Shown here one piece after another: positions 1,651-24,703 of a stretch of 40,412 bases of DNA; within the stretch, counting starts at the first letter, position 1, and each line of letters starts with the position of its first letter. The notes beneath the pieces were generated by a model. The model did not search any database. It was not told the origin of the DNA and worked only from the letters and a program-made list of their open reading frames with translations. The translations under genes and the position numbers were made by a program. The stretch covers positions 1-40,412 of the forward strand of contig CANJMS010000011.1 in NCBI GenBank assembly GCA_947475825.1. Direction: 5' to 3'. Origin of the DNA: Nitrosomonadales bacterium. GTDB taxonomy: Bacteria > Pseudomonadota > Gammaproteobacteria > Burkholderiales > Gallionellaceae.

Positions 1651-2014
1651 GCTGCATGAGTAATTCTAGTAATGCAAAAGGGTCATACTTCGCTTTGGGG
1701 ATCAGCATTTCGCACGTTGCCCTTGTCGGGTGGCGTACTGCCACGCATAGGATAATATTGTGCGGGTCGCTGGAATCATCAACATGGATTGCCCGTGGTA
1801 GTTCGGGCGCAGTGTCTAACATCGCAATAACTTTTTGCCTTCGTGCTTCCCGTTGCCTGTCGAGTAGCGTTACCGGCTTGCCGTCTGTCTCTGTTGCGAC
1901 GTTGACACTTGCGACAGTTGCGACACTTGGGGGGTGAATAGGGGAAACTGTCGCATGTGTCGCAACTGTCGCAGTCGCAACTTCCTTTTTGCGTATGAGT
2001 TCGGATAGCTTCAT
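1628..2014 (-). CDS. Hypothetical protein with Val-Ala-Thr repeat N-terminus
   Basis: A 128-residue protein whose first half is a low-complexity VATVAT-type run, encoded by many copies of TGTCGCAA or its complement. The second half is a compact, more ordinary domain. The ATG overlaps the stop of the DUF3987 gene by four bases (ATGA), so the two are translationally coupled. From memory, proteins with a similar repeat-rich N-terminus follow DUF3987 genes in other proteobacterial elements. The repeats may matter as DNA (see the repeat entry) as much as protein. Function unknown. Confidence 0.6.
   Translation of the reverse strand: MKLSELIRKKEVATATVATHATVSPIHPPSVATVASVNVATETDGKPVTLLDRQREARRQKVIAMLDTAPELPRAIHVDDSSDPHNIILCVAVRHPTRATCEMLIPKAKYDPFALLELLMQHETQNAH
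1893..1981. repeat. Cluster of GTTGCGAC/GTCGCAAC direct and inverted repeats
   Basis: Several copies of TGCGACA lie on the left of a central GC-rich spacer and several copies of TGTCGCA on the right, making a large imperfect palindrome of about 90 bp inside the gene at 1628-2014. The outermost arms are GTTGCGAC at 1893-1900 and GTCGCAAC at 1974-1981. It could be a binding array for an element protein or an origin-like region. This is inference from the repeat pattern only. Confidence 0.6.
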
Positions 2015-3639
2015 GGCTCACCCCCGATCACCATCAAGGCCGGGTTCAGCCAGATAGACAACTGCTTCCCGTCCTTGTGTAGCTGGATGCGATCCAGTGA
2101 AACAAGTTCAGTGATAGCAACATCAAGCCGCGCCCCGTCCCTGATAGTTCCATGACGCTGTGCATACCGTCTTGCGACACAGTGGGTGTGCTCCCGCCTG
2201 CAATGTTCAAGCAACCACTTATCCAGCCGTGCCGCGTCCGCCATTTCAGCAGGCAAGGCAAGCTCACCAAAGAATCTGCGCGATTCGCTCAAGTGCCATA
2301 TTGCAATGCGACTTGCTCTATCGAATGCGTCCGCGCTCACTGCGCCTTGTCCGCCCTCGAACACATGGAGCAGTGCCGCCAGACGTGTGGCGTTATCTGC
2401 CGATTTTGCGGCAACATCGCGCACGTCATACAGCTCGCCGCCACCAGCAAGCTCTGATTCGATTGCATCGTGAAATTCAACCCACAACTTTTTGGCATCC
2501 GGTGTCAGTGTCAGCATTAAAGGTGTGAGCGATCCATTGTCATCAATCGGCACATCCTGATTCAGTAATTCAGTGACGCGGCGATTGAACACGGCAAGGC
2601 TTGGCCAATGTTCGGGTGCTTCGGTGAACGGGCGGTTGCCCTGCGTTGATTCAGGCCACGCGATCAGGAAACGGGCGAGGAAGCCTGTACCGCGTGCCAA
2701 TGCCCCAGACTTTTCAAAGAAGGCAAGAAGGGTAGCTGCCTGCACCTGTAAAGCGACGGTAAGACGTGCGCCGCGCACAACAAATGATTCGGAAGTGCGC
2801 CGATCAATTGCCAAGTCGCCTCCATCCCATAGCGTATTCAAACGTGCCAAGTTGCGCATCACGCTGTCGCCACTCATACCGTGCGATCCAAACACGATGC
2901 CCGCTTCCGCCGATATCACGCCGCCGCTCGGCCACTTCATCGCCAGCTTAAACGCCAGCTCTTCCGGTGTGATGTCACCATACAGGATGCGCGGCACACG
3001 CGGCTCTTCCGGCTTGCTGTGTTCGAGGTCGCGCAGGTCACTCTCTAACCCGTTGGTCGGTTTTTTCTCTTTTGCGAGTTGCCGGATTTTGTCTTTAACG
3101 CCGTTGCGCTTGGCCTCCCAGATTGCGAGGTCTGCGTTGTAGTCTTTTATGAAAGGCTTGGCCGTTTCCGCCTGCGCGGTTTCATAGTCGCGTAGTGCTT
3201 GCGTAAAGAATCCATCACACGTTGATTTTCGCTCGCCGCTGTCCGCGATGATTGCCGTAAAAAGTCCAACAGGGGAGTGGAGCATTTCTGCTCGTTGCAC
3301 ATCGAAGTGGGCTTGTATCGACAGCGACAAGGCAGCGATTGCCGATGTCGCCACCATCGCAACGGGTGCTTGAACAAATGCTCGCACCTCTTCCACCGTC
3401 GCACGGATGGTGTCTGGCAGTGCATCAATAGGATAGGGTTCTGCTTCGATCTTTGCCGTCAACGGTTGCGGCACAGGCCATGCTGGTGCGTTGGTATTGC
3501 CGCCGTTATCCGCAGGGCTAGAATCGAATCCTGCGGGGTCGTTTTTTTGCTCTACCGGCTTTACCGCATCAATCGCCAGTTTCACGGCTTCCAAGCCGGA
3601 TAGTTTTGCCATATCGTTGAAGTCGGTTAGCTTATTCAT
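2011..3639 (-). CDS. DUF3987-type replication/helicase-like protein of integrated element
   Basis: A 542-residue protein of the DUF3987 type, which accompanies primase-like genes in prophages and integrative elements. A GERKST segment lies in the N-terminal half in a Walker-A-like context. I chose ATG 3639 because it overlaps the preceding Toprim gene by eight bases at CATGAATAA; a longer frame reaches 3738 but would overlap that gene by about 100 bases. The protein opens with LTDFNDMAKLSGLEAVKLAI, a segment that in related elements ends the Toprim protein, so the boundary between the two genes looks displaced. It probably helps replicate or mobilise the element; the biochemical activity is not established by anything visible here. 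Confidence 0.75.
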   Translation of the reverse strand: MNKLTDFNDMAKLSGLEAVKLAIDAVKPVEQKNDPAGFDSSPADNGGNTNAPAWPVPQPLTAKIEAEPYPIDALPDTIRATVEEVRAFVQAPVAMVATSAIAALSLSIQAHFDVQRAEMLHSPVGLFTAIIADSGERKSTCDGFFTQALRDYETAQAETAKPFIKDYNADLAIWEAKRNGVKDKIRQLAKEKKPTNGLESDLRDLEHSKPEEPRVPRILYGDITPEELAFKLAMKWPSGGVISAEAGIVFGSHGMSGDSVMRNLARLNTLWDGGDLAIDRRTSESFVVRGARLTVALQVQAATLLAFFEKSGALARGTGFLARFLIAWPESTQGNRPFTEAPEHWPSLAVFNRRVTELLNQDVPIDDNGSLTPLMLTLTPDAKKLWVEFHDAIESELAGGGELYDVRDVAAKSADNATRLAALLHVFEGGQGAVSADAFDRASRIAIWHLSESRRFFGELALPAEMADAARLDKWLLEHCRREHTHCVARRYAQRHGTIRDGARLDVAITELVSLDRIQLHKDGKQLSIWLNPALMVIGGEP

Positions 3640-4618
3640 GGTTCGCCCCTTCGCTGAATACCGGCATGGCAACAAAGCCGCCCACCGCTCGCGCAGCCTC
3701 AGTTGCGCCGCGCTTTCCGGCTTCGTCATCATCGGCACACAGCACGATCACGGCATCCGGTTGCTTTGCGCGCAGTGCTTGTGCCATTTTGCGAAGGTTG
3801 CCAGCGTCAAAGGCAACCACAACAGCATGGCCGGTGGCTTCGTGGATACTCGCAGCAGTGGCAAAACCTTCAGCGATGCAGATAGGTTTGCCGTCCACGA
3901 TCTTGCCGATCAAATAGCCGCCTTTTTCACCGTCAGGCAAAAAGCGTTTTTCACCATCGCGGTTTATGAATTGCAGGCTTGAAATTTTGCCGTTTAGCTT
4001 TATCGGTATCATCAGCGCGTTATTGCAGGCCATGCCGGCGATGGTCATGCTCCCGTGGTATATCTTCGCGCCATGGGGTTGAATGCGTTTGTGCATCAGA
4101 TAGCCGTGGTCAGCGATAGCCAGTTGCGTAGCTTCCAATGCGCTTGCTGGTGCATTCCATATTGAAGCGGCCTTGTCAGCCGCTCCCTTGCGCCGTAATG
4201 CCAGCAAGTCAGCTTCGGCTTTGCGCTTGGCTTCACGTTGGGCAATCTCTTCCGGTGCCGGTGGTGTCGGCTTGTCGGTGGTGCTGTGACGATAGCCGTT
4301 ATCCATTGCCAGCTTGAACAGTGTGGCGATGGTTATTCCGCCGCCGTCATCGAAGCCGCGCCACGAAGCCGCCGCCGCTCGCGCACTGTAGTTGTCAGCA
4401 GTCGCACTCCACCTGTCCCATGCGTCAAAGCCTGCATCGCCAAACTCTGATTTAATTGCCATGCCGCACTTGATCCAAGTGTCGCGGTCGGTCGCGTCAA
4501 TGAAGCTCAGGGTGTGTTCCACTTGCCCCAATGAAGTGCTAAAATTCTTTCCGTGGTTTGTATTCCTTGGGGTGTGTTGCTGGCTGGCAACTGCCCCGTT
4601 TTCTTTTGTGGTTTGCAT
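3632..4618 (-). CDS. PriCT-2 / Toprim primase-like protein
   Basis: A 328-residue protein. Residues about 30-115 match the PriCT-2 domain (IDATDRDTWIKCGMAIKSEF, then GGGITIATLFKLA). The C-terminal part is a Toprim domain with the acidic CIAEGFATA motif and the LCADDDEAGK motif that bind catalytic metal. It should act in primer synthesis or replication of the integrated element. It ends shortly after the Toprim DxD region, and the DFND tail usual for this class appears instead at the start of the next gene, which overlaps it by eight bases. It begins ten bases after the AlpA-like gene's stop codon, so the genes form one operon. Confidence 0.8.
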   Translation of the reverse strand: MQTTKENGAVASQQHTPRNTNHGKNFSTSLGQVEHTLSFIDATDRDTWIKCGMAIKSEFGDAGFDAWDRWSATADNYSARAAAASWRGFDDGGGITIATLFKLAMDNGYRHSTTDKPTPPAPEEIAQREAKRKAEADLLALRRKGAADKAASIWNAPASALEATQLAIADHGYLMHKRIQPHGAKIYHGSMTIAGMACNNALMIPIKLNGKISSLQFINRDGEKRFLPDGEKGGYLIGKIVDGKPICIAEGFATAASIHEATGHAVVVAFDAGNLRKMAQALRAKQPDAVIVLCADDDEAGKRGATEAARAVGGFVAMPVFSEGANHE

Positions 4619-4627
4619 GGCCGCCCC

Positions 4628-4831
4628 TTACGCTGTTTTGGTAAGGCTTGATTGCCATGCGATGATGTCCGATTGTTTCCACCTGACGCTTCCCGTCCCC
4701 AGCGATACCGGGTGTGGGAATTTACCTGCTTTGATTAAGCGGTAGATGGATGCGCGGGATATTCCGGCGATGAGCTCGACTTCTTTGCGACGTAACAGGA
4801 AGTCTGTTAGTTGGTGTGCTGTTTGATTCAT
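4628..4831 (-). CDS. AlpA-family transcriptional regulator
   Basis: A 67-residue MerR-like winged helix-turn-helix protein. It has the sequence LLRRKEVELIAGISRASIYRLIKAGKFPHPVSLG followed by RWKQSDIIAW, the typical AlpA signature (broken here at 20 residues: LLRRKEVELIAGISRASIYR). AlpA proteins are small DNA-binding regulators or excision factors of P4-like elements and often control the integrase. I chose ATG 4831 because AAAGGG lies a suitable distance upstream; the frame is open to 4882 but lacks a better start. It heads the replication genes, downstream of the operator-like palindromes at 4930-4986. Confidence 0.8.
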   Translation of the reverse strand: MNQTAHQLTDFLLRRKEVELIAGISRASIYRLIKAGKFPHPVSLGTGSVRWKQSDIIAWQSSLTKTA

Positions 4832-4929
4832 GTCGTACCCTTTCAAGATTGAATGAGAAGCGACACGAATTTTATGCCCCATTTTTACGCCGAACGGGGT
4901 TGAAACGGTTGAAGGGGTAGGGGTTACAT

Positions 4930-4986
4930 GGGTTCAACCCCAGGCATCAAACCCTTATGGTTATTGGGTTTTCTGGGGTTCAACCC
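4930..4986. promoter_or_regulatory. Paired GGGTTCAACCC palindromes, possible operator
   Basis: The 11-bp palindrome GGGTTCAACCC occurs at 4930-4940 and again at 4976-4986, with half-site-like GGGTTGAA copies near 4897-4917. They lie just upstream of the AlpA-like gene and at the 3' end of the gene before it. The spacing and symmetry suggest a dimeric regulator's binding sites, perhaps for AlpA itself. Inference only. Confidence 0.4.
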
Positions 4987-5737
4987 TTTTCTTTTTCGGG
5001 TCGTGGTTTTCGGGCTTGATAATCGTAAAAATTGTTGATGCGATGTTGTTTGATTCGCCCAACCCGGCACCAACCGCTTGAGTATTTATCCACTCGATGA
5101 CCTCTTCCTTCTTTGCATCAGGATTCCGCCGTGGATTAAAAAACTGTGCGATTGCTGCATTTTGGATAGTCAGCCAATGGGTAGAGTAAGCTGGGGCACT
5201 GGTGGTTTGTGCTGGTTGCGCTGCTTCCTGTTTGGGTATGTATAGGCCGCGCTCAATTGCCCAATCTAGCCAGTCAATCCTTAGGTTTTTAGATAATGCC
5301 CATTCAATAAAATATACGGGCGAATACTCACGATCAAAAGGGGCGGAGCATTCTGCATATCGTTCTTCGTTGTCGGATAGTTTTGATCGTTCCCATACGC
5401 CGCATAGTTGAGCATAACGATTAGCGCATAACTCGCCATGGCTTGGGCAAGCTCTATGTAGTGGTTCATCGTAGTCAAGCATTGTGTCGCCGCCATAGGG
5501 ATAACGACAACCTGCTAAAACTGCCAAACCATCTACAGCCTTCCAATAGTCGTATCTCAAGTAAAATTTTAATTCAGTCCAGTCCCATTCTCTAAATTTC
5601 TCTGCACGTATTCGCTCTATATTTAGTTGCCTATTTTCTTCGGAAAGTTTGTCTCGTTCTCCAAACTTTTCTACTCCTGCTCGTTCAGAAGCTAAGATTT
5701 TTTTATAGTCCTCAATTTCTTTTTCGTTGCCACTCAT
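4961..5737 (-). CDS. Hypothetical protein of integrated element
   Basis: A 258-residue protein that I do not recognise. The first 50 residues are charged and coiled-coil-like (repeated E, K, R). The middle contains aromatic-rich DWTELKFYLRYDYW and several cysteines, and the C-terminus is lysine-rich. I chose ATG 5737 because AAAGGGG lies five bases upstream; an in-frame GTG at 5752 is the alternative. It lies between the integrase and the AlpA-like regulator, on the same strand. Its base composition is more AT-rich than the replication genes, which suggests it is cargo acquired separately. No function is assigned. Confidence 0.6.
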   Translation of the reverse strand: MSGNEKEIEDYKKILASERAGVEKFGERDKLSEENRQLNIERIRAEKFREWDWTELKFYLRYDYWKAVDGLAVLAGCRYPYGGDTMLDYDEPLHRACPSHGELCANRYAQLCGVWERSKLSDNEERYAECSAPFDREYSPVYFIEWALSKNLRIDWLDWAIERGLYIPKQEAAQPAQTTSAPAYSTHWLTIQNAAIAQFFNPRRNPDAKKEEVIEWINTQAVGAGLGESNNIASTIFTIIKPENHDPKKKRVEPQKTQ

Positions 5738-5754
5738 CACGACCCCTTTCACAT

Positions 5755-5829
5755 CCCTAAAATAGAACCCACGCCAGCGGTTAAGGGTGTCCGTTTTCGC
5801 CCCGTCGGGCTAGGCGTGGATAACTCGAA
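5755..5829 (-). other. Short gap with inverted repeat downstream of integrase
   Basis: CCACGCC and GGCGTGG arms flank an inner GCCC/GGGC stem with a CGTC loop. It may fold as a transcript end for the integrase, but there is no good T-tract, so I do not call it a terminator. Confidence 0.3.
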
Positions 5830-7077
5830 TTATGCGCGCAGTGGTATCACGTCCGCGCCCTTTTCTACCTTGTCCAGATAGTCTGCCCACTGTTGCATGA
5901 TCCCGCGCCGCTCATCAAAGTAGGTGGTGCGGATGTATGCTGCTGCCGTCTCGTTTGTCAGCGCATGGGATAGCATCGCTTCTAACACTTCCCACCTGTG
6001 CCCCATATCGCCCAGCACGGTGCGCGCCAAGCTCCTGAAGCCGTGGCCTGTCATCCGGCCTTTGTAGCCGATAATCTCGATGATCTTCAATACGGTGTTT
6101 TCACTGATAACCCGTCCGGCACTGTTGCGGTTTGGAAATACATACTCACCCATCCCTGTGACTGGATACAGGACGCGTAGGATTGCGACGGCTTGGGAGC
6201 ATAGCGGCACAGCATGGGGCTTGCGTTTGCCATGCTTGCCCTTGCGCCCGGTCTGCTCTTCTGGAATAACCCAGCATCCTGCATCTAGGTCGAAGTCAGC
6301 CCACTTTGAAAAGCGCACTTCGCTGGTGCGTGTCGCGGTCAACATCAGCAGGCGCATGGCAGTTATGGCAATGGGCGATACCTTCGCCATGGTCTGATAA
6401 TCGGTAACTGCGCGCAGGAATGCGGGTATCTCGTTCGTGTCTATGCAAGGGAAGTGTTCAGCTTTTGGGCGCTCAGTCAGTGCCATGCGAATTTCAGCCG
6501 GATTGTATTTAGCGCGGCCTGTAGCGATTGCATACTTGAACACCGCACCGATTGATTGAAGCAATCTATCCCGTGTCTCGAATGTGCCGTTAGTTTCCAC
6601 CGTCCGCATGATGCCCACCAGTTCCATTGGCTCAATATCAGCAATCGAGCGATTGCCTATGATGGGCAAGGCGTACTTTTCCATGTTCATTAGCCACTGC
6701 TTTGAGTGTCCGGGTGTCCACATGGGAGACTTGACCTTGTGGAATTCGGTTGCAAGTGTGGCAAAGCTGTTTTCACTGGCTAACTGCAAAGCTTTCTGAG
6801 CTGCCTGCTTCGCTTCCTGCTTTACCGCGCTTGGGTCTGCCCCGTTCGCTAGTAGCCTGCGCGCCTGTTCGCGCCGATCCCGTGCTTCGGATAGGGTAAT
6901 GTCTGGATATACCCCCAGCGAAAGCAACTTTTCTACCCCCAGAATGCGGTACTTGAGCCGCCACCACTTAGAGCCTGTTGGTTGCACCAGCAGAAACATG
7001 CCGCCGCCGTCCGCCATCTTGTACGCTTTGGCCTCTGGCTTGGCCTTCTTAATTGCCACTTCGGTTAGTTTGCTCAT
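5830..7077 (-). CDS. Tyrosine recombinase / phage-type integrase
   Basis: A 415-residue tyrosine recombinase with an N-terminal DUF4102-type arm-binding domain (MSKLTEVAIKKAKPEAKAY, DGGGMFLLV, LGVYPDITLSEAR). The catalytic domain shows the first arginine in TATRTSEVRF, the HxxR box in GHGFRSLART, the second histidine in LSHAL and the tyrosine nucleophile near AYIRTTYFDERR. I chose ATG 7077 because family members start at MSKLT; the frame stays open to 7149. It sits about 180 bases from the 3' end of tRNA-Ser, the usual arrangement for P4-type integrases that use a tRNA 3' end as attachment site. It would integrate and excise the element occupying the left of the window. Confidence 0.92.
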   Translation of the reverse strand: MSKLTEVAIKKAKPEAKAYKMADGGGMFLLVQPTGSKWWRLKYRILGVEKLLSLGVYPDITLSEARDRREQARRLLANGADPSAVKQEAKQAAQKALQLASENSFATLATEFHKVKSPMWTPGHSKQWLMNMEKYALPIIGNRSIADIEPMELVGIMRTVETNGTFETRDRLLQSIGAVFKYAIATGRAKYNPAEIRMALTERPKAEHFPCIDTNEIPAFLRAVTDYQTMAKVSPIAITAMRLLMLTATRTSEVRFSKWADFDLDAGCWVIPEEQTGRKGKHGKRKPHAVPLCSQAVAILRVLYPVTGMGEYVFPNRNSAGRVISENTVLKIIEIIGYKGRMTGHGFRSLARTVLGDMGHRWEVLEAMLSHALTNETAAAYIRTTYFDERRGIMQQWADYLDKVEKGADVIPLRA

Positions 7078-7184
7078 GATCTTGCCATCTGGGGGTAGCA
7101 ATTTTCTTGCCGGGGGTAACATTATCAAACCTACCCCCAAATAGTGCAAGCTTCTCTGATACCACCTGATACCGCTTGAGCAAG

Positions 7185-7219
7185 AAAAAACCCGCTAAAG
7201 CTATACGCAGTGCGGGTTT
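7185..7219 (-). terminator. Rho-independent terminator after tRNA-Ser
   Basis: AAACCCGC at 7188-7195 and GCGGGTTT at 7212-7219 form an 8-bp stem. On the minus strand the stem is followed by a run of Ts (7185-7190 complement). It would end the serS and tRNA-Ser transcript before the integrase gene. Confidence 0.75.
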
Positions 7220-7251
7220 AAGAGATTGCTTGAGACTAGTTAATAACGTGT

Positions 7252-7343
<92 letters not shown>

Positions 7344-10335: not shown

Positions 10336-11766
10336 CTACGGGGTGAGCGTATGGTAAACCTCAATCCCGTTCGTGGCCCCTACAGCGTGGCAGGTAGGGC
10401 AACTTTCGACAAGTGTGGTCGTGGTCATGGTTGCGGCATGTGCAGCCGTATAGCTTGCATCGTGACACGAGGTACATGCTGCCGTTATCGGCTGCGTCTG
10501 GATCGTAGTTCCGTTGAAAGAACCAGTGTTGCAATATAAATCAGTATCAAGAAGCGGATCCTCGATACAGGTGAACTTCGTTGCCGTCGAAGCAAGCAGT
10601 CCTTGCGCAAGCGGTATATCGTAGGTGCCGGGCAGATGACAGGTTATGCAGGCACCCACATTGGAACCGGCTGGAAAGCCGGTCATGCTGCCAAAATCGA
10701 TAGGCGTTCCTGAAGGATTGGTTAACGTAGGCGCGGGTGTCCCGCCGACGATGTAAGGCTGAGTCAGTGCCGTACCGCGATGGATCTTGTGTATCAGCAC
10801 TTTCATGTCCATCGACTGTGCGACGATGATCGCATTCTCAAAGCGGGCCACTTGGGTATCGTTGGATTTGTTCGGGTTGTGGCAAAACGCGCAATACTGA
10901 ACGCCGCGATTGACTCCGTTGTGTGCCGTGATTGTCGCGTGACAGGCATTGCACTTAGCGTCATCCACCACGACTCGTCGCGGTGCCGCCGATGAGACGC
11001 CTGTCACAACAAAGGGCAGTATGGGAGACACAATGCTGAAACGTATTCCGGGATAAGCGGCGGCATCCAGGACATAGCCCTCCAGTCCGATGGCGTAGCT
11101 GCCTGTGGCAGTCAGCGGTATGGCCCCGGTTACAGGGAATGTGTAATTGAAAACACCGGCAGGCGCATCAACGGCTATGAGAGTCCCCACTACACCACTT
11201 CCCTGAATCTTGGCTTGCAAGTAAGTTGCATAATCAGTCGTTGGTCCTGCGATCGTCGCTATAAGCGATGCAAATGGGGTAGTCAGAATGTTTACGGGAA
11301 CGCCGTTGCTGCTGACATGAAAGGTGACTATTGGTGTCTGACCGGGGGCAGTGTTGCTTATACCTTGTATGGTCAGGGTGAGCACGGAACACACCACATT
11401 GACATCGGTGATGTTGGCGCCAGCTATCGTTCCCGCGTTATTCGATACCGTGCATGTTTGCACGGGAGCTGTGGGATTCTGGCTTACCTGTACATTGTAC
11501 GTCTTGCCCGTGGCAAGGTGAGTTGTGAAAGCGAATGCACCGGCAGCGTTGACGGTTATTTCATTTGCGGCATTGTTGGTTAATTTAAGTCCGGAGACCG
11601 AAATTCCGCTCACTGAGCCGCTTACGGTGTAAGTGGTAGTGCTGGTTGCAGGTACGGTTCCAGACCCTCCGCCACCGCCGCCACATCCTGTTACAAGTGC
11701 CGCCAATAAGGATGCTATCAACAAGGCTATCGGTTTTGATTTTCGATAATTGCCGAATATTTTCAT
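10336..11766 (-). CDS. Pentahaem OmcA/MtrC-like outer-membrane cytochrome c lipoprotein
   Basis: A 476-residue secreted lipoprotein. A short signal peptide ends in the lipobox LVTGC with the lipidated cysteine at 28, followed by a Gly-rich linker. Residues 45-260 look like beta-sandwich domains. The C-terminal half holds five CxxCH haem sites at 272, 292, 373, 431 and 456, and LIHKIHRG at 324-331, a motif typical of OmcA/MtrC family cytochromes. Those are usually decahaem, so this is a half-size member. It probably sits on the outer membrane and passes electrons to or from outside acceptors or donors. AAGGA precedes ATG 11766 at a good distance. No mtrA/mtrB-like partner is in the window. Confidence 0.85.
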   Translation of the reverse strand: MKIFGNYRKSKPIALLIASLLAALVTGCGGGGGGSGTVPATSTTTYTVSGSVSGISVSGLKLTNNAANEITVNAAGAFAFTTHLATGKTYNVQVSQNPTAPVQTCTVSNNAGTIAGANITDVNVVCSVLTLTIQGISNTAPGQTPIVTFHVSSNGVPVNILTTPFASLIATIAGPTTDYATYLQAKIQGSGVVGTLIAVDAPAGVFNYTFPVTGAIPLTATGSYAIGLEGYVLDAAAYPGIRFSIVSPILPFVVTGVSSAAPRRVVVDDAKCNACHATITAHNGVNRGVQYCAFCHNPNKSNDTQVARFENAIIVAQSMDMKVLIHKIHRGTALTQPYIVGGTPAPTLTNPSGTPIDFGSMTGFPAGSNVGACITCHLPGTYDIPLAQGLLASTATKFTCIEDPLLDTDLYCNTGSFNGTTIQTQPITAACTSCHDASYTAAHAATMTTTTLVESCPTCHAVGATNGIEVYHTLTP

Positions 11767-20743: not shown

Positions 20744-21835
20744 TCAGACGTTGAACAGGAAATTCATCACATCGCCATCCTGCACGACGTAGTCTTTACC
20801 CTCGACGCGCATCTTGCCTTTTTCCCTGGCACCCGCTTCGCCGCCGCAGGCGATAAAGTCGGCATAAGAGATGGTCTGTGCGCGGATAAAGCCCTTCTCG
20901 AAATCAGTATGAATCACGCCTGCCGCTTGCGGCGCGGTGTCGCCCTTGTAAATAGTCCAAGCGCGCACCTCCTTCACACCAGCGGTGAAATAAGTTTGCA
21001 GGCCAAGCAAATCGTAGCCAGTGCGGATCAGGCGATTCAGTCCAGGCTCGTCCAGGCCGAGGTCAGCAAGGAATTCTTTTTTGTCGGCATCGTCGAGATC
21101 GGCCAGTTCAGCTTCGATCTTGGCACACAGCGCGACAACAGGCGCACCCTCTTTCGCTGCATGTTCACGGAGTCGATCCAGGTGCGGATTGTTTTTGAAG
21201 CCGTCTTCGAACACGTTGCCCACATACATCGCAGGTTTGATGGTGAGTAGGCACAGCGGTTTGATGAGCAACTTTTCGTCATTGCTCAAGGTAAAAGTGC
21301 GGGCGGGCTTGCCTTCATTCAGATGCGGCAGCAATCTCTCCAATACAGCGAACAGCTTCTGCGCATCCTTGTCGCCAGACTTGGCTTTTTTACCTTCGCG
21401 CTGAATGGTACGCTCCACAACCGCAAGGTCGGCCAGCGCCAGCTCGGTGATGATAACTTCGATGTCAGACAATGGATCGACGCGTCCGGCCACATGCACC
21501 ACGTTCTCATCATCAAAGCAGCGCACCACGTTAACGATGGCATCAGTTTCGCGAATGTTGGCAAGAAACTGGTTTCCCAGCCCTTCCCCTTTCGATGCGC
21601 CCGCCACCAGCCCGGCAATGTCCACGAACTCGACAATCGCAGGCTGCATTTTTTGCGGTTTGACGATCTTGGATAACTCATCCATGCGCACATCCGGCAC
21701 TTCGACGATACCCACATTCGGCTCGATGGTACAAAACGGATAATTCTCCGCCGCAATGCCCGCCTTGGTCAGTGCATTAAACAGGGTGGACTTGCCAACA
21801 TTGGGCAATCCGACGATTCCACATTTCAAACTCAT
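20744..21835 (-). CDS. ychF: Ribosome-associated GTPase/ATPase YchF
   Basis: A complete 363-residue OBG-family P-loop protein that prefers ATP and binds ribosomes. The G1 motif is GLPNVGKST at 9-17, followed by [13 protein letters not shown] (switch region) and [16 protein letters not shown] (G3). The C-terminal TGS domain contains [18 protein letters not shown]. It usually follows pth directly; here about 2.3 kb separate them, filled by the retron-like cassette and a repeat. As the gene remains intact and essential-looking, it may now be transcribed from its own promoter in 21836-21992 or by read-through from the cassette. Confidence 0.96.
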
Positions 21836-21992
21836 GGTTATTCCTTAACTTTTGCCGGATTTGAAAAGGCGCGAATTGTAACATCCTTGGGGGATTGGGC
21901 TTTGCCAAGTAGATGATGCATGACACACTGGGGAAGAGAAAGCGAAAATCAAAAATCGTTAATTCGGGTTGACCAACATGTTGCCCACGCAA

Positions 21993-23015
21993 TTAAACTC
22001 TGGTTAATTTAGTTTTCGGAATGGTTGGGGTAAGTATTTGCTTGGCTTCCTGCAAACGTCCCTTTAATGATCTAATGAGCCTCGTCTTTTCGTTGCCTAC
22101 AGCATTCTGAAGGGCTCGACGATCTTCCCATATTTTCTTGTGTCTTGAATTGGGGAGACACACCTCATCTCCTACAACGACAACACCAGTTACTGTTTTA
22201 GGTACGTTTGCAGAGAAAGTTCTTGTCTTTGAATTCTTGGTCTTTAAATCATGTTGACGCACAGTTTGGCGCACTTGACTCATCAATGTTTTGGTTACAT
22301 TTTGACCGGACAAGGTAATGTCGTCGACGTACAACGTCATCTTAATGCCGTCCGAGTTAGCCTTTTCGTAAATTTCATCAAACATCCTGCGTGCCGCAAA
22401 AAATGTTTTGGTTACATTTTGACCGGACAAGGTAATGTCGTCGACGTACAACGTCATCTTAATGCCGTCCGAGTTAGCCTTTTCGTAAATTTCATCAAAC
22501 ATCCTGCGTGCCGCAAAAAAAGCAATTCGTCCACTTAATGCGCTGCCCGTTGGCAAATGTTTTTGTTGATAGCAGCAAATATCTGCAAGAATATTTGCAA
22601 TGTCATTTGCACATTTAAAATCTTCCAAAAACATGCGCGATACCATTTGATGAGTTGTGCTTGGGTAGAACTTGGAAATGTCAGTTTTTCCCAACGGGAC
22701 ATTGCCAGTATGTTGTCTTGCATTATCAACATAGGACCGCCCCTTCTGTGAATACACGTAATCAGGTACTTCAATACGTGAAAATAAATCACCAATGCGT
22801 TTATGTACTTGTCCTAGCCAGTTAATTGGTTGTTGAATTTCTCGTCCTTTTTCAATACTCCACACTCGATAATTATCGGGGGAAAGTAATCGATCCAGAT
22901 GTTCGAGTTGAATTCCAAGCAAAGTTTCAAGTTGACCTTTCCCGACAATCTTGTAGAGACGGGAGTCTTGAATAGGGTATCGGCGATTAGCTTTGTTCGA
23001 CCGCATCGCGCTCAT
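21993..23015 (-). CDS. Retron-type reverse transcriptase with duplicated catalytic segment
   Basis: A 340-residue reverse transcriptase. The retron-specific NAxxH motif is NARQH at 98-102, motif A is KTDISKFYPST around 110-120, motif B is PTGSALSG near 155-162, the catalytic YVDD occurs twice (190-193 and 229-232), and the retron VTG motif is at 275-277. The second YVDD is due to a perfect 39-residue tandem duplication (166-204 and 205-243). Without it the protein would be 301 residues, normal for retrons. It would copy the linked structured RNA into msDNA. I chose ATG 23015; it overlaps the HTH gene by 29 bases. It may be inactive because the palm domain is disrupted. Confidence 0.88.
   Translation of the reverse strand: MSAMRSNKANRRYPIQDSRLYKIVGKGQLETLLGIQLEHLDRLLSPDNYRVWSIEKGREIQQPINWLGQVHKRIGDLFSRIEVPDYVYSQKGRSYVDNARQHTGNVPLGKTDISKFYPSTTHQMVSRMFLEDFKCANDIANILADICCYQQKHLPTGSALSGRIAFFAARRMFDEIYEKANSDGIKMTLYVDDITLSGQNVTKTFFAARRMFDEIYEKANSDGIKMTLYVDDITLSGQNVTKTLMSQVRQTVRQHDLKTKNSKTRTFSANVPKTVTGVVVVGDEVCLPNSRHKKIWEDRRALQNAVGNEKTRLIRSLKGRLQEAKQILTPTIPKTKLTRV
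22285..22520. repeat. Perfect in-frame 117-bp tandem duplication inside RT gene
   Basis: The sequence 22285-22401 is repeated exactly at 22402-22518, and the identity runs on two more bases. The unit is 117 bp, 39 codons, with no mismatch between copies. Each copy encodes FFAARRMFDEIYEKANSDGI followed by KMTLYVDDITLSGQNVTKT. The A-tract GCAAAAA at the junction may have helped slippage. Confidence 0.98.
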
Positions 23016-23292
23016 CAATCCACTCTAGCAATCGAAGAATTTTGTCGGCAGCTGCAACACGAAGTTTCTCGCTCGGTTTTTGGGGCTCTTCTATTTTTTC
23101 AGAAAAAAGAATTATGGATGACACTGGTATTTTGAATACCACTGAATATTTTTGCAGCAAATCGATACTAGGCGTTTTAAGTCCATTCTCAATCTCACTG
23201 AGGTATGAATTACCAATATCCAGACGCTTGGCCAGTTCAACTTGCTTGAGCTGGTGATATGTACGTAACAATTTCAATGCTCTGTTCAACAT
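22987..23292 (-). CDS. XRE-family helix-turn-helix protein of retron cassette
   Basis: A 101-residue protein with a standard XRE/Cro HTH at residues about 5-62 (LRTYHQLKQVELAKRLDIGN, then SYLSEIENGLKTPSIDLLQ). A C-terminal charged helical tail may dimerise. AGGG lies seven bases before ATG 23292. It is translationally coupled to the RT, which begins inside it. One published retron class is defined by a small HTH accessory gene (type VI as I recall). I infer it represses the cassette by binding the perfect dyad at 23759-23777, or controls the peptide's activity. Confidence 0.88.
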   Translation of the reverse strand: MLNRALKLLRTYHQLKQVELAKRLDIGNSYLSEIENGLKTPSIDLLQKYSVVFKIPVSSIILFSEKIEEPQKPSEKLRVAAADKILRLLEWIDERDAVEQS

Positions 23293-23323
23293 GATTTAAC
23301 CCTAGAAATAAGAGGGCGCTGGC

Positions 23324-23467
23324 TTACTCGAAAAAGTCAATAATCCGGACGATCAGACTAAATAAATTCAAGACAAAAGATGCTATCCTGAAAGTGCCTG
23401 GACGTCTCAGCCATGACCTGACCTTGATTGCCAGCCCCCACCGCTTTGAGGCTTTCTGGTCACACAT
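23324..23467 (-). CDS. 47-residue cationic/hydrophobic peptide, candidate retron effector
   Basis: A 47-codon ORF starting at ATG 23467 with AGGAGG six bases upstream, the best ribosome binding site in the cassette. Residues 1-24 are basic (QKASKRWGLAIKVRSWLRRP). Residues 25-46 are a continuous hydrophobic, possibly amphipathic helix (FRIASFVLNLFSLIVRIIDF). It lies between the structured leader and the HTH gene and ends 31 bases before the HTH start. The same frame is open upstream to 23551, but that part lies inside the structured RNA. The composition is like small membrane-acting toxins. I know no family for it; an effector role is inference. Confidence 0.6.
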   Translation of the reverse strand: MCDQKASKRWGLAIKVRSWLRRPGTFRIASFVLNLFSLIVRIIDFFE

Positions 23468-23476
23468 GGTGATCCT

Positions 23477-23720
23477 CCTGGTTACACTGCCACATGGCAG
23501 CCGTCGTTCATAACCAAGCAGAGAAGCGGTGGTTTTTACCCTCTTACCCAACTAATGCATGTCCGGTGTCGTTCCGGACATGCTTGCGCCTAGCTACTAC
23601 TGCATCGCTCGGCGTACGCTGCACCCCGACCATGCGCAAGACACAAGGAAGTACCTTTCGGTACCACAGGCCGCTTTCGCAACCCACAAAACACAACGGT
23701 TGTGCTCTGTTAACCTCAGG
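23477..23720 (-). ncRNA. Candidate retron msr-msd RNA
   Basis: About 240 nt read on the minus strand from just after the promoter to the peptide's ribosome binding site. Stems seen: CACAA/TTGTG with a 3-nt loop; GTACC-GAAA-GGTAC; a 7-bp long-range stem at 23634-23640 with 23583-23589; a perfect 10-bp hairpin at 23557-23583 (GCATGTCCGG arms, 7-nt loop); CTGCC-ATGT-GGCAG at 23487-23500 inside TGGTTA/TAACCA. A candidate a1/a2 pair is CCT-GA-GGTTA at 23711-23720 with TAACCAGG at 23477-23484. An AGC just after a1 (G at about 23705) could hold the branching guanosine. The ends and branch site are inferred, not shown. Confidence 0.6.
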
Positions 23721-23725
23721 AACGC

Positions 23726-23753
23726 ATTATACACGGCATTTCTATAAAAGCAA
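23726..23753 (-). promoter_or_regulatory. Sigma70-like promoter of retron cassette
   Basis: On the minus strand TTGCTT (23748-23753) and a perfect TATAAT (23726-23731) are separated by 16 bp. Transcription would start near 23717-23720, at the head of the structured RNA. Confidence 0.75.
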
Positions 23754-23758
23754 TATTT

Positions 23759-23777
23759 ATTTCTCTAATAGAGAAAT
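23759..23777. promoter_or_regulatory. Perfect dyad, likely operator of HTH protein
   Basis: ATTTCTCTAATAGAGAAAT is a perfect inverted repeat with 8-bp arms and a 3-bp centre. It lies five bases upstream of the -35 element of the cassette promoter. Its size fits an XRE-type dimer, and the only such protein nearby is encoded in the cassette. Confidence 0.6.
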
Positions 23778-23799
23778 TAGGTAAAGGGGTGACGTAGCA

Positions 23800-24016
23800 T
23801 CGTTTTTCTCTTGAGCTGTGCGCACCGCCCGCTTCCCCCTGTGCGCCGCCGAGTAGCGGAGTCTGGTCAGGGGGGATGTCGGCGAGGACTGTCTGAGCGC
23901 GTAGTGCGAGTTCCGCAGCCGCCTGACCAGTCGAGCAACGCAGGACACCCGAAGGGGGGCAAACCGGGGGGCGATTTCTTTTGGTTACTTTTCTTGGCAA
24001 GACAAGAAAAGTGACT
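23800..24016. repeat. Dispersed GC-rich repeat with terminal hairpin
   Basis: A GC-rich stretch with a non-coding look, ending in a perfect 10-bp hairpin (ACTTTTCTTG at 23987-23996 with CAAGAAAAGT at 24003-24012). The motif GCGATTTCTTTTGGTTACTT followed by this hairpin is one I recall as a recurring intergenic repeat in many proteobacterial genomes, where it produces spurious ORFs ending in FFWLLFLA-like residues. A further small hairpin follows at 24021-24037. Nothing else is seen to 24127. Confidence 0.5.
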
Positions 24017-24127
24017 AGTTGCTGGTCTACCACCAGCGGTGTTGTTGTTTTGGGGTTACGCGATGAAACCGCTAACCCAACCCACTAACTCCGGTGGTTC
24101 GACATACCCACCACGAACGGTTAAGAT

Positions 24128-24703
24128 TTACGCACTATGCAGCTTCAACATCGCCGCTTCCAGCTTGCCCTCAATAATCAAATCGGACACATCTAAAGCC
24201 TGCTGCAATGCAGGCTCAATTAACTCTGCTTCTTCGCGTCGCGGTGGATTGAGCACGTAATTCACTACCTCAGCGCGCTCGCCCGGATGACCGATGCCGA
24301 TGCGTAGCCGCCAAAAATCTCGGCTGCCCAGATGTGCGATGATGTCCTTCAAGCCGTTATGTCCGCCGTGACCGCCACCCAATTTCAGCTTGGCTACACC
24401 CGGAGATAAATCCAATTCATCATGCGCTACCAAGATATTTGCCGGTGCAATTTTATAAAACTGCGCCATCGCACCGACTGCACGACCACTCACATTCATA
24501 AAATTTTGCGGCTTGAGAAAATGTATTTCTCGACCCTGAATTTGACCCCGTGCAACCAGCCCGTGAAATTTAGCGTCCGCTTTGAAGTTTATTTTATTTT
24601 GCTGAGTAAAGCGATCCACCCACCAGAATCCTGCGTTATGGCGGGTAGCTTCATATTCACGGCCCGGATTGCCCAAGCCAACAATAAGGTTTATTTCACT
24701 CAT
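24128..24703 (-). CDS. pth: Peptidyl-tRNA hydrolase
   Basis: A 191-residue esterase that releases peptides from prematurely dropped peptidyl-tRNAs. Family motifs are intact: VGLGNPGREYEATRHNAGF at residues 8-26 with the catalytic His and Asn, FLKPQNFMNVSGRAV, HDELDLSPG, and GGHGGHNGLKDI. Length and start are normal. It lies in the conserved prs-rplY-pth-ychF order but is separated from rplY by a MITE-like element and from ychF by the retron-like cassette. Confidence 0.96.
   Translation of the reverse strand: MSEINLIVGLGNPGREYEATRHNAGFWWVDRFTQQNKINFKADAKFHGLVARGQIQGREIHFLKPQNFMNVSGRAVGAMAQFYKIAPANILVAHDELDLSPGVAKLKLGGGHGGHNGLKDIIAHLGSRDFWRLRIGIGHPGERAEVVNYVLNPPRREEAELIEPALQQALDVSDLIIEGKLEAAMLKLHSA

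What the first reader, a model, noticed from the sequence alone, without database searches (positions are those of the whole stretch)
22285..22520. Perfect 117-bp in-frame tandem duplication doubles the RT active site
Seen: two identical 117-bp copies, each encoding 39 residues with YVDD, with no mismatch. Perfect identity means a very recent event (or an assembly artefact). The frame is preserved, so a protein with two catalytic loops is made. Loss of one unit by slippage or RecA would restore a normal 301-residue RT, so this could act as a reversible off switch.
Basis: partly seen in the sequence, partly recalled or inferred. Interest (0 to 1): 0.7.

Follow-up and report, generated by a model that had tools for sequence, protein, structure and literature searches.

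The report
Duplicated active site in retron polymerase
A bacterial anti-phage "retron" in this genome has, probably by a single copying slip, doubled the stretch of its reverse transcriptase gene that encodes the catalytic site; this looks like an ordinary one-off mutation whose effect on the enzyme is untested, not a proven genetic switch.

Summary
Window 22285-22401 and 22402-22518 are identical 117-bp tandem copies (2 further bases match), in frame inside a reverse-transcriptase ORF (21993-23018, minus strand). The 341-aa product carries YVDD twice (residues 191-194, 230-233).

The locus is an apparently intact type VI retron: candidate structured RNA, 47-aa basic/hydrophobic peptide ORF, HTH_VI regulator, RT_VI. 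It sits between pth and ychF, which lie 14-17 bp apart in 15 of 18 genus relatives. The duplication was found nowhere else: 0 of 85 distinct related RT ORFs, 0 of 39 E. coli relatives; the nearest relative found (Undibacterium, 66% identical) has one unit, so one unit is ancestral. The junction has only 2 bp of microhomology.

A predicted structure absorbs the extra 39 residues as a disordered loop beside the catalytic hairpin and keeps the retron-RT core. So "two catalytic loops" is not the expected product, and "off" is unproven.

The reversible-switch reading is not supported as an evolved feature: collapse to one unit is plausible, but re-duplication should be rare and no recurrence was found. 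Assembly error cannot be excluded without reads. Best reading: a spontaneous intragenic tandem-duplication allele, probably impairing the RT, in a known kind of system.

The parts
22285..22401 (-). Tandem unit, 3' copy in gene orientation (residues 206-244, second YVDD 230-233; codon boundaries are offset from the unit ends)
22402..22518 (-). Tandem unit, 5' copy in gene orientation (residues 167-205, first YVDD 191-194)
22519..22520 (.). AA, continues the identity by 2 bp: the whole junction microhomology
21993..23018 (-). Retron reverse transcriptase, RT_VI, 341 aa from TTG (ATG at 23015 or 23006 also in frame); overlaps the HTH gene
22987..23292 (-). XRE-type HTH regulator, HTH_VI, 101 aa
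23324..23467 (-). 47-aa basic/hydrophobic peptide ORF, probably the small auxiliary protein of type VI retrons; candidate effector
23484..23720 (-). Candidate retron non-coding RNA (msr-msd); ends approximate, msDNA not shown
21920..24127 (.). Extra DNA between pth (24128-24703) and ychF (20744-21835) that carries the retron; the two genes are 14-17 bp apart in 15 of 18 genus relatives

Best explanation
A type VI retron (RNA, small peptide gene, HTH regulator, RT), inserted between pth and ychF in this lineage, has suffered one spontaneous in-frame 117-bp tandem duplication inside its RT gene, probably by replication slippage or template switching at a 2-bp microhomology. The RT gains 39 residues. 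Because the copies are identical, the chain can pair the helix of one copy with the catalytic hairpin of the other and loop out the rest, so the core fold can form with one active site. I expect reduced or lost msDNA synthesis rather than a new function, and the allele can collapse back to one unit by slippage. Shown: the duplication, its frame, its absence from the relatives examined, the retron gene set, the insertion site. Inferred: duplication mechanism, folding, activity, reversibility.
For: Duplication exact and in frame. RT_VI E 6.2e-98 and HTH_VI E 1.2e-36. In a 13-sequence alignment the 39-residue insertion is only in the window; nearest relatives Undibacterium L017 (66%) and G123 L003 (46%) have one unit. 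No protein-level tandem copy in 85 distinct related RT ORFs, own genome as positive control. 39 of 39 E. coli relatives align in one piece over 98-100% of a one-unit query with spans of 911-927 bp. Locus single in its genome. pth and ychF 14-17 bp apart in 15 of 18 genus relatives, 2,292 bp apart in the window. RT and HTH have been under constraint, pN/pS 0.30 and 0.21 against Undibacterium (synonymous sites near saturation, so rough). The two-unit model keeps the retron RT fold: mean pLDDT 83, residues 176-213 under 50; VIA Z to Ec86 7v9x 23.0 (rmsd 3.5, 277 aligned) against 23.9 (rmsd 3.4, 270 aligned) for the one-unit relative, a tie.
Against: No reads, so the duplication itself or its copy number could be an assembly error. 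The small peptide ORF, HTH and RNA region look intact, which would be odd if loss of the RT freed a toxin; this favours retained RT function. The structure model was made from an alignment whose gap already lay at the helix-hairpin loop, so it does not test other registers fairly. No activity data exist.
Confidence: 0.6

Rival explanations
1. Functional two-unit RT: the extra 39 residues are a tolerated surface loop between the helix after the PTGS motif and the YVDD hairpin, and the enzyme makes msDNA at useful levels.
For: In the AlphaFold2 model the core helices and strands of the one-unit relative are all present and only 176-213 is disordered. Fold scores to retron RTs fall little. The other retron parts look intact. 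Frame kept (1 in 3 by chance).
Against: That loop is 3 residues long in the one-unit model and none of the 12 relatives has an insertion there, so natural tolerance is undocumented. A 39-residue insert next to a catalytic hairpin often harms folding (general knowledge).
Confidence: 0.25
2. Assembly artefact: the genome has one unit, or a different number of units, and the contig is wrong.
For: Draft genome of 119 contigs. The repeat is longer than some k-mers used by short-read assemblers (general knowledge). No second strain confirms the junction.
Against: Short-read assemblers tend to collapse such repeats rather than create them, so a junction inside the contig suggests reads that cross it (inference). 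It is the only such repeat in the window.
Confidence: 0.12
3. Evolved phase switch: gain and loss of the unit regularly turns the retron off and on in the population.
For: Intragenic tandem duplications with reversible effects are in print: pneumococcal capsule genes (PMC4022640, passages) and microhomology-mediated tandem duplications in fungi (PMC13207564, passages).
Against: 0 of 85 other related RT ORFs and 0 of 39 E. coli relatives have a duplication. Only 2 bp of microhomology at the junction. No within-species data.
Confidence: 0.03

Closest known systems
Type VI retrons (RT_VI + HTH_VI, small auxiliary protein), e.g. Undibacterium umbellatum L017; phage example Shewanella MuM16-1 (PMC8541194, passages)
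   Same: Gene order RNA region - small peptide ORF - HTH - RT, overlapping HTH and RT genes, RT motifs, profile matches
   Different: Only the window RT has the 39-residue tandem repeat with a second YVDD
Spontaneous intragenic tandem duplications in pneumococcal capsule genes (Waite et al. 2001, 2003, seen only as cited in PMC4022640)
   Same: Tandem duplication inside an ORF, in principle able to revert by loss of one copy
   Different: There loss of capsule and phase variation are reported; here neither a phenotype nor a second allele is known
Retron-Bth1, an RT gene interrupted by a group II intron yet making RT-DNA (PMC12548924, section 10)
   Same: A retron RT gene carrying extra DNA in its coding region
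   Different: There an intron thought to splice out; here a duplicated stretch that stays in the protein

Membership tests
Type VI retron | RT of the RT_VI family | tested here: met
   PADLOC RT_VI E 6.2e-98, best of 45 families matched
Type VI retron | Adjacent HTH protein of the type VI kind | tested here: met
   PADLOC HTH_VI E 1.2e-36, directly upstream of and overlapping the RT
Type VI retron | Small auxiliary protein gene next to the HTH gene | tested here: met
   47-aa ORF, 55% identical to the Undibacterium one; similar short basic ORFs in 24 of 26 relatives, judged by eye; no PADLOC or PHROGs family. Feature as described in PMC8541194; the defining paper is not held
Type VI retron | Structured non-coding RNA upstream | tested here: inconclusive
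   Stable fold, z -3.26, 0 of 200 shuffles as stable; same place in L017, z -5.47, 0 of 200; conserved hairpin by eye; no Rfam retron match at gathering score
Type VI retron | Makes msDNA and defends against phage | not testable with these tools
   needs an experiment
Reversible phase-variable gene | Both alleles present in a population | not testable with these tools
   one genome per species, no reads
Reversible phase-variable gene | Recurrent duplication at the same place in relatives | tested here: not met
   0 of 85 related RT ORFs, 0 of 39 E. coli relatives

The most novel reading that the evidence does not exclude
The two-unit RT is active and the identical copies let it fold in alternative registers, so that one polypeptide can use either catalytic hairpin: a duplication-generated, tunable retron RT whose unit number sets msDNA output and so the threshold of the defence.
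Probability: 0.04. Interest if true: 0.75.

Novelty: new variant of a known kind. Interest (0 to 1): 0.3.

Why it matters
If real, it is a natural test of how much extra sequence a retron RT tolerates beside its active site, and of what happens to a retron's other parts when RT output falls. It also cautions against reading every perfect in-frame duplication as a switch. The wider locus draws attention to a small, basic, hydrophobic peptide found at the same place in most type VI retrons read here, whose role is untested.

Tried and rejected
Same duplication elsewhere: loci fetched were checked for repeats at DNA level and protein level. One search found an RT match in 96 loci outside the own genome; L006 had no single ORF over the match and was dropped, identical proteins were merged, leaving 85; they include distant retron RTs and some cut by contig ends. 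None has a tandem copy. A few have a second [YFW]xDD-like string by chance, not as a repeat. The plasmid and phage searches listed 108 and 25 records, all under 60% identity; of these I fetched only H51, H2 and H14. H14 was the only row listed with two pieces (40 of 108 plasmid records and all 25 phage records were listed); its annotation shows an RT split in two ORFs, not read further. E. coli: no match for the L109 RT, 39 genomes for L105.

Dispersed repeat: rejected, locus and upstream stretch single in the own genome. A Shine-Dalgarno of the small peptide held in a long-range stem: clear only in L017; in the window and L003 it pairs locally in the fold, so no common rule is claimed. Viral scan with the window RT alone: nothing. 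Literature on duplication in a retron RT: (retron, tandem duplication, reverse transcriptase, YADD) 0 papers; (in-frame, tandem duplication, reverse transcriptase, retron) one congress volume, unrelated by its title. (microhomology, tandem duplications, reversible, bacteria, intragenic) 0 papers; one Deinococcus paper, listing only.

Full report
Observation. The duplication is as described. Two 117-bp copies, 22285-22401 and 22402-22518, are identical, and two more bases match. No exact 40-mer direct repeat of another spacing exists in the window. The repeat lies in a 341-aa ORF (21993-23018, minus strand); 117 is a multiple of three, no stop is created, and the 39-residue unit with YVDD occurs at 167-205 and 206-244. 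A random 117-bp duplication in a 1026-bp gene would cover the whole YVDD about one time in ten and be in frame one time in three (my arithmetic), so neither feature demands selection.

What the gene is. PADLOC calls the ORF RT_VI (E 6.2e-98, two stretches) and the gene just upstream HTH_VI (E 1.2e-36). Pfam gives RVT_1 and HTH_3 above their cut-offs; no NCBIfam cut-off is reached. The model's fold matches solved retron RTs: Eco2 9lm3 Z 23.5, rmsd 3.4, 281 aligned; Ec86 7v9x Z 23.0, rmsd 3.5, 277 aligned. Upstream of the HTH gene is a 47-aa ORF (23324-23467), 55% identical to one of the same length in Undibacterium umbellatum. Similar short basic ORFs precede the HTH gene in 24 of 26 relatives by my reading; L021 had no HTH gene upstream and L140 was unclear, and several of the 26 are close variants from viral contigs. 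Further upstream a region folds stably in the window (z -3.26) and in Undibacterium (z -5.47), and DNA similarity between the two begins at about window 23718. I read it as the retron RNA; this is unproven, and Rfam has no retron match. [quoted passage not shown]

Where it sits. pth and ychF are 14-17 bp apart in 15 of 18 genus relatives. Of the other three, L080 has 249 bp without retron similarity, L091 has no pth within 1.5 kb and other small ORFs instead, and L097 is a fragment. The window has 2,292 bp there. L080 and the window share about 119 bp on the ychF side, up to window 21919. The retron is therefore extra DNA at this site in this lineage; horizontal gain is the likely reading, with the nearest relative found in Undibacterium.

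Is one unit ancestral? Yes. In a 13-sequence alignment all 12 relatives lack the 39 residues; the closest is Undibacterium at 66%. In 85 distinct related RT ORFs none has a protein-level tandem copy by the test that flags the window. In E. coli 39 of 5,426 genomes hold a relative of the L105 RT, all in one piece over 98-100% of the query with spans of 911-927 bp. Matches to the RT_VI profile at E 1e-30 occur in 27 of 399 order genomes and 27 of 369 class genomes, own genome included in each; many of these are other retron RTs. Only the own genome has two such matches inside one ORF; the other genomes with two matches have them far apart or on different contigs. Within the family 13 of 158 genomes, own included, match at E 0.001, most of them distantly.

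How it arose. The junction shows 2 bp of microhomology (AA) and nothing more. That fits replication slippage or template switching; the forward event should be rare, while collapse of two identical 117-bp copies is much easier (general knowledge). This asymmetry argues against a two-way switch. Perfect identity bounds the age only loosely.

What it does. AlphaFold2 on the two-unit protein with 20 relatives gives mean pLDDT 83.1 and pTM 0.78, with one disordered segment, model residues 176-213. In model numbering the copies are 158-196 and 197-235 and the YVDD motifs start at 182 and 221, so the second YVDD forms the hairpin (strands 217-221 and 224-228) and the first lies in the disordered loop. 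The one-unit Undibacterium protein gives 92.6 and 0.87. The secondary-structure elements correspond one to one apart from a helix inside and near the insert (194-211) and a short C-terminal one. Because the copies are identical, the same core can be built with the insert at any register within the unit. The supplied alignment had its gap in that loop, so the model shows feasibility, not preference. Foldseek TM-score to 7v9x, normalised to the target, is 0.68 for two units and 0.71 for one. I expect impairment (about 60%) rather than full function, on general grounds. The intact-looking small peptide, HTH and RNA argue somewhat the other way, since in retrons the RT-RNA-DNA complex is said to sequester a toxic effector (PMC12548924, start of abstract in the listing).

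Precedent. PMC4022640 (passages) reports a short tandem duplication in wchA of one nontypeable pneumococcus and cites Waite et al. for duplications that control phase variation; those papers I did not see. The same passages put reversion of repeats of at most nine bases at no more than about 1e-5 and judge most such isolates not able to revert. PMC13207564 (passages) reviews reversible microhomology-mediated tandem duplications in fungi. PMC12548924 (passages; section 10) reports Retron-Bth1, an RT gene interrupted by a group II intron that still makes RT-DNA. So the mutation type is known; its presence at a retron RT active site was not found in the held library.

Verdict. Real in the sequence given, found in this genome only, most likely a spontaneous allele; assembly error not excluded; switch not supported. 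Interest is modest.

Noticed in passing
23324-23467 (-): 47-aa basic peptide ORF with hydrophobic C-terminal half (net charge +6, best 19-residue hydropathy 1.98), at the same place ahead of the HTH gene in 24 of 26 relatives by eye; no PADLOC or PHROGs family. Candidate effector.
   Followed up: partly
23484-23720 (-): Candidate retron RNA; a long hairpin keeps its pairing in the window, L017 and L003 though its sequence differs in L003 (by eye).
   Followed up: partly
L091 1-1500: In genus relative G106 the stretch ahead of ychF holds other small ORFs, one XRE-like by eye (untested), so this site may collect defence or toxin-antitoxin genes.
   Followed up: no
L146 618-1673: Acinetobacter baumannii plasmid NZ_CP027184.1: HTH gene followed by an RT annotated as two separate ORFs, so the retron RT looks broken there.
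   Followed up: no
2011-7343: Tyrosine integrase (5830-7149), int-alpA RNA (5755-5820), DUF3987 protein (2011-3738) next to a tRNA gene (7257-7343): a probable integrated element.
   Followed up: no
10336-11766 (-): MtrC/MtrF-like outer-membrane cytochrome domain with a doubled CXXCH match, suggesting extracellular electron transfer.
   Followed up: no
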